Below, in pieces: positions 23,763 to 29,371 of a stretch of 64,000 nt of DNA (the stretch's first letter is position 1; each line of letters opens with the position of its first letter). The stretch is from Gymnothorax reevesii. Its lineage: Eukaryota > Chordata > Actinopteri > Anguilliformes > Muraenidae. The notes beneath the pieces were generated by a model. The model did no database searches, was not told the origin of the DNA, and saw nothing but the letters and a program-made list of their open reading frames with translations. The stretch is taken from positions 53,919,620 to 53,983,619 of the forward strand of contig CM056583.1 of NCBI GenBank assembly GCA_029721435.1. The letters are read 5' to 3'. Both the position numbers and the translations under genes were made by a program.

Positions 23763-23772
23763 ACGATCTGAC
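23763..23772 (+). promoter_or_regulatory. Self-primer binding site of the gypsy element
   Basis: ACGATCTGAC lies two bases after the 5' LTR, where reverse transcription is primed. It is the exact reverse complement of GTCAGATCGT in the LTR (28937-28946), which begins 30 nt after the start of the TATA box and so should be at or near the 5' end of the RNA. No TGG-starting tRNA-type site is present. In Tf1 and sushi elements the RNA's own 5' end folds back on such a site as primer. Confidence 0.75.
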
Positions 23773-23773
23773 C

Positions 23774-24799
23774 ATGACGGAGCCAGCGTCAGACCAGTCT
23801 CTGCAGGAGGCAGTGCACCAGCAGGGCACTCAGTTGGAGTTTCAGGAACGTCAGCTCCGTGCTTTGATGCAGCACATGCAAACTATGAGTCTCCAGATGG
23901 CGGATCTCACTCGCTCAGTGCAGGAGGCGCAGTGACTACAGTCACCCCAGCCTACCGTCTATACTCCTCCTGCTCCCGCTTCCGCTCCGCCCCTACCCAG
24001 CTGCGAGCCACGTCTACCACCGCCGGAGAGGTACGACGGGAACTCGGGAGCATGTCGGGCGTTTCTCACCCAGTGCGAGCTCATCTTCTGCCTGCAGCCT
24101 TCGTCCTTCCCCACCGAAAGAGCGCGAGTTGCTTTCATTATCACGCAACTGACAGGAAGAGCTAAGCAGTGGGCTACAGCGGCTTGGGAAGCTGATCTCC
24201 CATGTGTACAGACTTTTCGTCTACTGGGTGAAGAGATGAGGCGGATCTTTGATCGCACCAAGTTGGGTCACGAGGCAGGACGAGAGATCCTACGCATGCG
24301 ACAAGGTGGGCGTCCCGTAGCCGACTACGCCATTGATTTTCAGACGTTGGCCACCAACAGCAGATGGGGACAGAGAGCTCTGTATGATGCCTTCTTTGAT
24401 GGATTATCTGAAGCACTTAAAGATGAGCTAGTGTCGCGGGAATTACCGGAGAACTTGGACGACCTTGTCGACCTGGCTATTCGCGTGGATTCGCGATTGG
24501 AGGAGCGCCGACGCCTCGCTTCCCGCAGACGACCATATCCAGCTCCCCAGAGTACTCCGCCTCGATCACCCCCTACTGGCAGCCGCCTCCCTGAGCCTGA
24601 ACCCATGCAATTGGGCCGTACGCGCATTCCTGTGGAGGAGAGGGATCGCTGCCGCCGTGATGGGGCCTGCTTTTACTGTGGCAAGGGAGGACACCTTATC
24701 GCTCAGTGCCCTAACAGGGAAAAAAAAAAAGAAGAGAAGAGGTCCTCCTGGTGCCCGCATAGCAACAGTAATAGGGGTGACGCCGGGACAGGAAACTAA
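23774..24799 (+). pseudogene. gypsy gag, one in-frame stop
   Basis: Capsid/nucleocapsid protein that packages element RNA. The ATG at 23774 comes one base after the primer site. The N-terminal part (MTEPASDQSLQEAVHQ...) is Gln-rich and probably coiled. A TGA at 23933-23935 interrupts the frame, which then stays open to a TAA at 24797-24799 (342 codons in all). Past the stop come a proline-rich linker, a retrotransposon gag domain (AFLTQCELIFCLQPSSFP, GRAKQWA, FDRTKLGHEAGREI) and one CCHC zinc knuckle (CFYCGKGGHLIAQC). An A11 tract (24720-24730) after the knuckle marks the change to the pol frame. The TGA may come from CGA by CpG decay (inference). Confidence 0.92.
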
Positions 24800-26730
24800 C
24801 AATCGCACATGCGTTCCTGTAACTTTGGAATGGGGGGGCGAGAGCAGATCCACCGAGGCTCTCGTGGACACCGGAGCGGAGGAAAATGTAATTGATGAGG
24901 AGCTGGCCCGGAAATGGGGCGTTCCCACGGAGAAGATCTTCCCTGATCGAGTGGCCAATTCGCTCAGTGGCCAGAGGATCGCTCAAATAACCCATACGAC
25001 CAGCCCCATCAAACTCAAGGTGTCAGGAAACCACCACGAAACCATTCAGTTCCTCCTGTTATACTCTCCCCATGCTCCTATCGTCCTGGGCCATCCATGG
25101 ATGGCCAAACACCTACCAGAGATCGACTGGCGCAAGAATGAAATTAAGGGATGGAGTCCCAACTGCTCCCTGACATGCCTCCGCAACGCCCTCGACCCTC
25201 TACACAACCCATCTCCGGAGGAGATTCCAGACCTGGAAAAGGTTCCTCTAGAATTCCATGACCTCAAGGAGGTTTTCTCAAAGTCCCGGGCCACCAGCTT
25301 ACCACCTCACCGACCCTATGACTGCACCATAGACCTGAGGCCAGGTACTATGCCCCCTAGAGGCCGACTCTATTCACTCTCCAGACCAGAAACCCAAGCT
25401 ATGGAGAAGTATCTCTCAGAGTCTCTTGCTGCTGGCATTATACGCCCGTCATCATCACCTGCTGGTGCGGGTTTTTTCTTCGTATCAAAGAAGGATGGAT
25501 CATTAAGACCCTGTATTGATTACCGTGGCCTCAACGAGATATCTATTAAGAACCGCTACCCACTTCCCCTCATGAACACCGCTTTTGATCTCCTGCAAGG
25601 AGCCAAGATCTTTACTAAGCTCGACCTCCGGAATGCATACCACTTAGTGCGAATCAGAGAGGGGGACGAATGGAAGACCGCCTTTAACACTCCCACGGGG
25701 CACTGGGAATATTTGGTTCTTCCTTGCGGGCTTACCAACGCTCCAGCAGTGTTTCAAAACCTCGTCAATGATGTCTTAAGAGACATGATAAACAAGTTTG
25801 TTTTCGTTTATCTTGACGATATTCTGATTTTTTCTGAATCCCAGGAGGACCATGTTAAGCATGTTCGCCAAGTGCTCCGTCGCCTCTTGGAGAACCGCCT
25901 TTTCGTCAGGGCCGAAAAGTGTGAGTTTTTTGTTGAAACAACCACTTTTTTGGGTTACATTATTTCTCCGGGCACCATTCGCATGAACCCAGTAAAAGTG
26001 GAGGCAGTTACCAAGTGGCCCCGACCAGAGGACCGTAAGTCACTCCAACGTTTCCTAGGATTTGCCAACTTCAACCGGCGGTTCATCAGGAACTATAGTT
26101 CTGTTGCGGCTCCTCTTACTGCTCTCACCTCCTCCAAGTTCAAGTTTCGTTGGTCGGAGAAAGCAGAGGACGCCTTTAAAGAATTAAAAACCAGATTCAC
26201 ATCTGCACCCATCCTCACTATTCCCAACCCAGAGCTCCAGTTCATCGTCGAGGTGGACGCCTCCAATATTGGAGCTGGAGCCATCCTGTCTCAGAGGTCC
26301 ATGGAGGATGGGAAGATCCATCCATGTGCCTTCTTCTCTCGCCGCCTCAGCTCAGCGAAAAGAAATTACGACATCGGCAACCGGGAGCTGTTGGCGGTGA
26401 AGTTAGCCTTGGAAGAATGGAGGCAATGGCTGGAAGGATCCAAAGTTCCCTTTATTGTCTGGACTGACCATAAGAATTTGGAGTACCTTCAGACGGCCAA
26501 GAGACTCAACCCACGACAAGCCAGGTGGGCATTATTTTTTTCCCGTTTCAATTTCCACATCGTCTTCAGACCAGGAAGTAGAAATGTTAAACCTGACGCC
26601 CTCTCACGCTGTTTTGAGATTAGGGAAGAAAAACCTTGCAATGATACTGTACTCCCTAAGGAGGCTTTTATTAACGCTCTATGTTTTAATATTGAAAGAG
26701 AGGTCAAGGATGTAGTGCTTGCCCCACTAA
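24733..26730 (+). pseudogene. gypsy pol, part 1: protease, RT, RNase H
   Basis: Open frame shifted relative to gag and overlapping its end. Aspartic protease: LVDTGAEENVID near 24861, with ILGHPW farther on as the flap/C-terminal part. Reverse transcriptase: RPCIDYRGLN, KLDLRNAYHLVRI, LPCGLTNAPAVFQ and the active site FVYLDDILIF with YLDD at 25809-25820, then LGYIIS and the connection domain. RNase H: EVDASNIGAGAILSQ, RNYDIGNRELLAVK and TDHKNLEYL, followed by PDALSR. All catalytic aspartates I can check are kept. The frame is lost between the end of RNase H and integrase, around 26715-26735, probably through a deletion. Confidence 0.95.
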
Positions 26731-26734
26731 TTGC

Positions 26735-28030: not shown

Positions 28031-28046
28031 ACGCCAGGAGGCGTTC
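28029..28046 (+). other. Hairpin between pol and polypurine tract
   Basis: GAACGCC, loop AGGA, GGCGTTC: a perfect 7-bp stem that overlaps the pol stop codon and sits three bases before the G-run used for plus-strand priming. Confidence 0.6.
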
Positions 28047-28049
28047 GTT

Positions 28050-28059
28050 GGGGGGGGGG
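28050..28059 (+). promoter_or_regulatory. Polypurine tract
   Basis: Ten G in a row, three bases before the 3' LTR. In LTR retrotransposons the purine tract here resists RNase H and primes plus-strand synthesis. All-G rather than mixed A/G is unusual. Confidence 0.75.
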
Positions 28060-28062
28060 TTC

Positions 28063-29371
28063 TGTTGTGAATCTACATTTGGTCATGCCTTTCCCTAGTT
28101 CCATGTTTAAGTTTTGTGCCTGGCCATGCCACGTATGCTGTTTGTGTTTAAGTGACCACTGCCTGCCTCTGACCATCCCCATGATTATGTATTGTGTTTT
28201 GTTGTTTGATTTCATGTTTTATTATTTTTCATGTTTTGTTATTATTTATGTCTTTGCCATGTTTTATAGTCTTGCCATGTTTCACATCCTTGCCATGTTT
28301 TCATAGCCTTGCCACGCTTTCATAGTCTTGTTTTTAGTTCTAGTCCTGCACTTCGTTTACCCTGTCTTGTCTTGTGTAGGTCTTTGCCCACGGTCCCTTG
28401 TCTGACGTGCCACTCATTCGGGTGATTTCCTGGTTTCTGGGATTTCAATCTTTCTTCATATCTCGTTTTTCTTCCTTCCTCTCTCTGTTACCATCCACTA
28501 ACCATACTAACAGTTTATTGTTTTCGATTAATTACTAACCAAGATTAACATTGTATATTTTTACTAACGGACTAACTTGCACTCGGGATTGTATAGCTGC
28601 ACATACTAATAGACTAACGATCTCTCAGCATTCGCCCAATCTGTATCTCCGCCCTCCTTGCCTATCACTAATTATCTCTACTGCAGTTTCCACTTATATC
28701 TCAGGCTTTCCCTTTTCTTTAGACTGTACACTTTAGTACTCCTTAACCGGAGCCGTTTATTCGTTCATAGGAATGTCTCGTTATCCCTGTCTGCGTTTCG
28801 GCATTCGCCAGATTCATGTAATTAGATAAACCCTCATGTGTCAATCCTGATTATTGTTTCATTGATCGCACCTGTGCTCCCTTGTCATGTGTTCACCCCG
28901 GATGTGTATATAAGGTGTCTCCACTTTTAGTTCCTTGTCAGATCGTCTTTACTCCTTTGTCTTGTGCTACGTTCCTCGCCTTGCTCATTGTGATATTTTC
29001 TTTCTGACTGGATTGCCCGACACTTTTTTTTGGTTTGCCCTTTTGGATCTGATTGCTTTTGTGAGTTTTGACCTATTTTTGCCTGACCACGTCTATTGTC
29101 TTTTGCTGCCCTGGTATTTTGGATTCGGACTGTTTACGGCTAATGAGTTTGCCTCTCCACCAAACCCACGCCTGTGTACCAAACCATTTTTGCCTGACCT
29201 TGAGTTTTGTTATTGGTGCCCTGGTTACAGTTTTGGATTTTGCCCTTTGGATTCTGATTGTGGACATTGTACTGTTGCCAGCGCTGTTGGGGGGTTTCCC
29301 CCTTCAGAAATAAAGCCTCCATTTTGCATTTATCTGGTTCTCGCTCTTGGCTCATTTCGTAAAACCTCACA
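28063..29371 (+). repeat. 3' LTR of the gypsy element
   Basis: 1309 bp, TGTTGTGAATC to CCTCACA. Nearly identical to the 5' LTR. It lacks about 8 bp near 29260 that the 5' copy has and keeps an intact TATATAA box. AATAAAG lies near 29308. Confidence 0.95.
28907..28946 (+). promoter_or_regulatory. LTR core promoter and predicted RNA start
   Basis: TATATAA at 28907-28913 and GTCAGATCGT at 28937-28946. The 30-nt spacing places the ten-mer at the expected transcription start, so it would be the 5' end of the element RNA. Same spacing in the solo LTR (18228 and 18258). Confidence 0.7.

What the first reader, a model, noticed from the sequence alone, without database searches (positions are those of the whole stretch)
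23763..28946. Gypsy element appears to prime its own reverse transcription
Seen: after the 5' LTR there is no TGG-type tRNA site but ACGATCTGAC (23763-23772), the exact complement of GTCAGATCGT at 28937-28946, which starts 30 nt after the start of the TATA box. The same ten-mer and spacing occur in the older solo LTR (18228/18258). Known: Tf1 and sushi-group chromoviruses use the 5' end of their RNA as primer. Inference: this fish family does the same, with a two-base gap after the LTR.
Basis: partly seen in the sequence, partly recalled or inferred. Interest (0 to 1): 0.75.

Follow-up and report, generated by a model that had tools for sequence, protein, structure and literature searches.

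The report
Self-primed fish sushi-type retrotransposon
A young jumping element in what looks like a fish genome carries the signature of copying itself with the start of its own RNA as primer instead of a borrowed tRNA, a trick already known from yeast Tf1 and its vertebrate relatives, so it is a well-supported new member of a known kind.

Summary
ACGATCTGAC (23763-23772) follows the 5' LTR after TT and is the exact complement of GTCAGATCGT, 30 nt after the TATA start in the 3' and solo LTRs. The element is a chromodomain Ty3/gypsy. A match at that position came up in 1 of 20,000 shuffles. The ten-mer is exact in 38 of 40 close copies and in 11 of 12 leader-bearing copies of a second subfamily. 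No TGG occurs for 75 nt. Inside the fish family the two sites hardly vary, so co-variation is untested there. Among 17 related chromovirus contigs, 7 show the same layout with a two-base gap, five different primers and one compensatory change. Against: folding does not predict the duplex in the fish leader, and tRNA genes were not compared. Self-priming in vertebrate Tf1/sushi elements is in print, so this is a new member of a known kind. A U3 hairpin that could mask the second primer copy in five relatives is the freshest by-product.

The parts
22440..22444 (+). target-site duplication GTTTC, left
22445..23760 (+). 5' LTR, 1316 nt
   Evidence: LTR pair and duplications
23290..23297 (+). TATA box of the 5' LTR, changed to TACATAAG
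23320..23329 (+). predicted primer / RNA 5' end in the 5' LTR, GTCAGATTGT (one CpG change)
23740..23751 (+). U5 segment CTCATTTCGTAA, 9 of 12 like primer+AA, can pair with TT+binding site
23761..23762 (+). two-base gap TT
23763..23772 (+). primer binding site ACGATCTGAC
   Evidence: exact complement of 28937-28946 and 18258-18267
23774..23935 (+). start of gag, ended by an in-frame stop at 23933-23935
24900..26750 (+). stop-free part of pol: protease, reverse transcriptase, RNase H
26753..27532 (+). integrase H2C2 and core, in another frame than the reverse transcriptase
27557..28030 (+). integrase C-terminus with SH3_Tf2-1 and chromodomain
28050..28059 (+). run of ten G just before the 3' LTR, likely polypurine tract
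   Evidence: read
28063..29371 (+). 3' LTR, 1309 nt
28907..28914 (+). TATA box of the 3' LTR, TATATAAG
28937..28946 (+). primer ten-mer GTCAGATCGT in the 3' LTR
29372..29376 (+). target-site duplication GTTTC, right
17446..18700 (+). solo LTR of a second subfamily, duplications AAAGA, TATA 18228, ten-mer 18258-18267

Best explanation
The element is a Ty3/gypsy chromovirus that works like the Tf1/sushi group. Its RNA is predicted to start at the G of GTCAGATCGT, 30 nt after the TATA start. That 5' end anneals to ACGATCTGAC two bases after the 5' LTR, the RNase H of the element's reverse transcriptase cuts the ten-mer off the RNA, and its 3' OH primes minus-strand DNA. Shown: the sites, their spacing, their constancy in copies, and co-varying counterparts in relatives. 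Inferred: the RNA start, the annealing, the cut and the priming. The TT gap fits the two bases that an integrase normally trims from the cDNA end (general knowledge).
For: Chromodomain and SH3_Tf2-1. Exact ten-mer complement at TATA+30; 1 of 20,000 shuffles. No TGG for 75 nt. Ten-mer exact in 38 of 40 close copies and in 24 of 30 LTRs of the second subfamily, 11 of the 12 that have a leader. 7 of 17 related contigs have TATA, 29-44 nt, primer, later CA + two bases + complement, against 54 hits in 1700 shuffles. Compensatory change between L002 and L003/L004/L016. Papers describe self-priming as common in the group (passages of PMC10085805; PMC6317226; PMC4600332).
Against: The duplex is absent from the predicted fold of the fish leader; forcing it costs 14.0 kcal/mol (501 nt; 40 of 40 shuffles cost no more) or 9.3 (493 nt; 26 of 30). 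The binding site is predicted to pair with U5 instead. One element lacks TATA and primer in both LTRs yet keeps the site (L075/L076). Another chromovirus, SM-Tcn1, is reported to show neither tRNA nor self-priming (passage of PMC2864245). Co-variation inside the fish family could not be tested. RNA start unmapped.
Confidence: 0.9

Rival explanations
1. A host tRNA, or an internal tRNA fragment, primes at or near 23763, and the match to the LTR is not used.
For: Most LTR elements use tRNAs; tRNA genes of this genome were not compared; the fold gives no support for the self-duplex.
Against: No TGG in the first 74 nt after the LTR; the match sits at the expected RNA start and recurs in relatives.
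Confidence: 0.05
2. The ten-mer match is chance and marks no primer.
For: 309 of 20,000 shuffles match somewhere in the LTR.
Against: Position at the RNA start, 1 of 20,000; constancy in copies; the same layout in 7 of 17 relatives.
Confidence: 0.02
3. Self-priming is right, but the leader is controlled by a U5 hairpin that hides the binding site until protein or another RNA opens it, instead of the three-duplex pretzel fold of Tf1.
For: Local hairpin z -3.1, 1 of 200 shuffles as good; inner pairs unchanged in the second subfamily; U5 segment resembles the primer, 107 of 20,000 shuffles as close.
Against: Only five distinct rows and no compensatory change; weaker in the second subfamily, z -2.0; tested after the hairpin was seen; none at the same place in L010, z -0.4.
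Confidence: 0.3

Closest known systems
Vertebrate members of the Tf1/sushi group (sushi-ichi and relatives; Butler et al. 2001, seen only as a citation in PMC6317226, PMC10085805 and PMC4340606)
   Same: Ty3/gypsy with chromodomain, no tRNA-type site, site complementary to the presumed RNA 5' end; AATAAA near the LTR end (63 nt) as described for Sushi LTRs (PMC3601003 section 12)
   Different: Long LTR (1.3 kb) and a 443-nt distance from primer to site; no pretzel-like fold predicted. Direct sequence comparison with sushi-ichi was not made.
Tf1 / Tf2 / Tj1 of fission yeasts
   Same: Primer at the RNA 5' end pairs with a site just after the 5' LTR (passages)
   Different: Tf1 needs a three-duplex leader (passage) that is not predicted here; host and sequence differ; the yeast priming is shown by experiment, here it is inferred
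Chromovirus contigs L001, L002, L003, L004, L007, L010, L016 (probably eukaryote DNA inside prokaryote assemblies)
   Same: TATA, primer, CA + 2 nt + complement; chromodomain found in L004, L007 and L010
   Different: Other primer sequences; primer to site 104-164 nt; duplex in the predicted fold of 6 of 7; 42-52% identity in the best RT segment

Membership tests
Chromovirus (chromodomain Ty3/gypsy) | chromodomain at the integrase C-terminus, RT before integrase | tested here: met
   Chromo E 4.4e-11 in 27557-28030, RT upstream
Tf1/sushi group | binding site complementary to the presumed RNA 5' end | tested here: met
Tf1/sushi group | place in an RT-integrase tree with Tf1 and sushi-ichi | not tested
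   No labelled reference sequences were at hand; near hits include Labeo rohita proteins named Transposon Tf2-6 and Tf2-9 polyprotein and a Takifugu protein
Tf1/sushi group | three-duplex (pretzel) leader | tested here: not met
   Not in the predicted fold; prediction only, and reported for several, not all, members
Tf1/sushi group | Sushi LTR end motifs TGTYANR and CNTNACA (PMC3601003 table 3) | tested here: inconclusive
   3' end CCTCACA fits; 5' end TGTTGTG departs at one base
Tf1/sushi group | priming by the element's own RNA 5' end | not testable with these tools
   needs RNA and strong-stop DNA
tRNA-primed Ty3/gypsy | TGG-starting site within a few bases of the LTR | tested here: not met
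   first TGG 75 nt downstream

The most novel reading that the evidence does not exclude
A self-primed RNA carries its primer twice, at the 5' end and in the 3' LTR, so the second copy must be kept off the binding site. Five of seven related elements could do this with a hairpin between the end of U3 and the primer; it cannot form at the RNA 5' end, where the U3 half is not transcribed. The fish family lacks that hairpin and may instead hide the binding site in a U5 hairpin until the primer is loaded. This would be a general control layer of self-priming.
Probability: 0.25. Interest if true: 0.55.

Novelty: new member of a known kind. Interest (0 to 1): 0.33.

Why it matters
It extends self-primed reverse transcription to an abundant family (1725 and 2202 first-look candidates for two LTR-end queries, solo LTRs included) with a long leader that is not predicted to fold like the yeast model. 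It also gives a small set of relatives in which primer and site change together, so the two-base gap, the RNA-start position and the leader fold become testable by comparison. The mechanism itself is already in print.

Tried and rejected
Leader folding was tried as support and came out against it in the fish element. Ten-mer identity with the solo LTR was dropped as strong evidence. The shared deletion of TATA and primer in both LTRs of one element (L075/L076) was weighed as evidence against self-priming; a deletion made during the copying that produced that element would give the same picture, so it decides nothing. Two scans of viral contigs found no relatives. Rfam and tRNA scans of the window were empty. 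Own-genome searches for other chromovirus families, for changed binding sites and for relatives of L064 did not complete, so co-variation inside this genome is untested. Paper searches; Lin & Levin 1997 and Butler 2001 are not held. No tree with Tf1 or sushi-ichi was built.

Full report
What is there. The window holds one full LTR element, 22445-29371, with 5-bp duplications GTTTC, and a solo LTR, 17446-18700, with duplications AAAGA. The element's two LTRs agree at 1295 of 1308 aligned bases, plus 9 gap columns, so it is young; the solo LTR is 85-86% identical to them. Pol has protease, reverse transcriptase, RNase H and integrase in Ty3/gypsy order and ends in a chromodomain. The copy is damaged: gag has a stop at 23933 and the integrase lies in another frame than the reverse transcriptase. 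The listed protein relatives (120 shown; 5890 passed of 7933 scored) are 50-73% identical; those that carry an organism name are fish and frogs.

The observation. ACGATCTGAC follows the LTR after TT. Its complement starts 30 nt after the TATA start in the 3' LTR and in the solo LTR. The duplex is ten pairs long, with mismatches on both sides. Shuffled leaders match the stretch 20-50 nt after the TATA start once in 20,000, and anywhere in the LTR 309 times. The 5' LTR, which starts the RNA, has C changed to T in the ten-mer (a CpG; U-G still pairs) and a changed TATA.

Copies in the same genome. A 161-nt query across the LTR end and binding site returned 40 scored matches, all 100% identical, out of 1725 first-look candidates. 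Thirty were held as loci; I fetched the other ten. The primer, about 440 nt upstream, was not part of the selection: it is exact in 29 of 30 and in 9 of 10. The exceptions are the window copy and L049, whose last base is changed. The primer lies in the longest quiet run, from about -15 to +50 around its start, although 125 of 487 ten-column windows are as quiet. A query from the solo LTR's end gave 40 scored matches of 2202 candidates, 30 of them held. Twelve of the 30 continue into TTACGATCTGAC; in the other 18 I saw no leader with a changed site, reading 24 nt by eye. The ten-mer is exact in 24 of 30: 11 of the 12 with a leader and 13 of the other 18. The six without are two LTRs cut before that region (L059, L065), two with one changed base (L060, L061) and the two LTRs of one element that share a deletion of TATA and primer (L075, L076). 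Neither site changes as a lineage, so this is constancy, not co-variation.

Relatives. A scan of bacterial and archaeal genome records found 17 contigs with a related reverse transcriptase, probably eukaryote DNA in those assemblies (my inference, not tested). One, L010, holds an LTR pair and a 9-nt self-complementary site. After hints from an exploratory scan of 14 of them, I ran a defined scan on all 17: TATA, 24-61 nt, a 9-mer, then CA, a gap of 0-5 and the complement. Seven had it: L001, L002, L003, L004, L007, L010, L016. Ten did not; many of the 17 are fragments that may lack an LTR. The gap was two in all seven. Primer start was 29-33 nt after TATA in six and 44 in L010; lengths were 9-12 nt. 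Shuffles gave a site in 0-12 of 100 per contig, 54 of 1700 in all. Controls with direct, reversed or complement-only 9-mers gave sites in 3, 3 and 2 of 17 contigs. Five of the seven come from one assembly (L002, L003, L004, L007, L016) and three share one primer, so there are five distinct primers. L002 differs from L003, L004 and L016 by a change in the primer that is matched in the site. Chromodomains were found in L004, L007 and L010; the piece of L003 showed only the SH3 domain, and L001, L002 and L016 were not tested.

Folding. In six of the seven relatives 11 or 12 primer pairs are in the free fold, but shuffled leaders that keep primer and site hold the duplex about as cheaply (mean cost 0.1-0.5 kcal/mol), so this shows no special leader design. 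In L010 and in the fish leader no pair is formed. For the fish leader, forcing the duplex costs 14.0 kcal/mol over 501 nt (40 of 40 shuffles cost no more) or 9.3 over 493 nt (26 of 30). The primer's first six bases pair locally with TCTGAC at 23386-23391 in the fold, and the binding site lies in a hairpin with U5 (z -3.1; second subfamily z -2.0). In that hairpin 19 of 23 pairs never vary, 1 varies on one side and 3 are lost in some rows; there are only five distinct rows and no compensatory change. The U5 partner resembles the primer at 9 of 12 bases (107 of 20,000 shuffles as close). Either the duplex forms with help from protein, as tRNA primers do (general knowledge), or the hairpin is a real control. 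The data do not decide.

Mechanism and literature. [quoted passage not shown] it is called a common feature of the Tf1/sushi group (PMC10085805, passages; PMC6317226, passages). One plant relative, SM-Tcn1, is reported without evidence for either kind of priming (PMC2864245, passages). Butler et al. 2001 on vertebrate members was seen only as a citation. So this is a known mechanism in a family whose name I did not look up in repeat libraries. The two-base gap needs no special account: it was found in each of the seven relatives and fits integrase end trimming (general knowledge).

By-product. In L001, L002, L003, L004 and L016, U3 just before the predicted RNA start can pair with the primer in a hairpin of 12 or 13 pairs (z -5.4, -2.7, -6.5 and -6.5 for L001, L002, L004 and L016; L003 has no z). 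By longest plain Watson-Crick run, L002, L003, L004 and L016 are unusual (2-4 of 5000 shuffles), L001 is not (275 of 5000; its hairpin includes G-U pairs). If transcription starts at the primer, this hairpin exists only in the 3' LTR part of the RNA and would keep the second primer copy off the binding site. L007, L010 and the fish LTRs lack it. Four of the five come from one assembly, so there are perhaps two independent cases. One paper search (10 of 15 listed) showed no title on this; I did not read those papers for it.

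Noticed in passing
L001:108-137, L002:682-711, L003:19-46, L004:65-92, L016:1568-1595: U3 sequence just upstream of the predicted RNA start can pair with the self-primer as a 12-13-pair hairpin, possible only in the 3' LTR copy of the RNA. The fish LTRs, L007 and L010 lack it.
   Followed up: partly
window 23723-23786: Predicted hairpin that pairs U5 with the gap and the binding site, z -3.1; the U5 arm resembles the primer at 9 of 12 bases.
   Followed up: partly
L075 and L076: Both LTRs of one element lack the same stretch of about 76 nt with TATA and primer, while the binding site is intact.
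   Followed up: partly
window 44442-45631: A second, decayed reverse transcriptase stretch, 29-39% identical to the element's; its first part has seven stops. No LTR pair for it in the scan.
   Followed up: no
L001-L017: Chromovirus DNA sits in records labelled as bacterial assemblies, probably eukaryote contamination.
   Followed up: no
window 23774-24799 and 24465-26861: gag and pol frames are offset by +1 in this copy, whereas -1 frameshifting is reported for most of the group outside fission yeast (passage); may be a defect of the copy.
   Followed up: no
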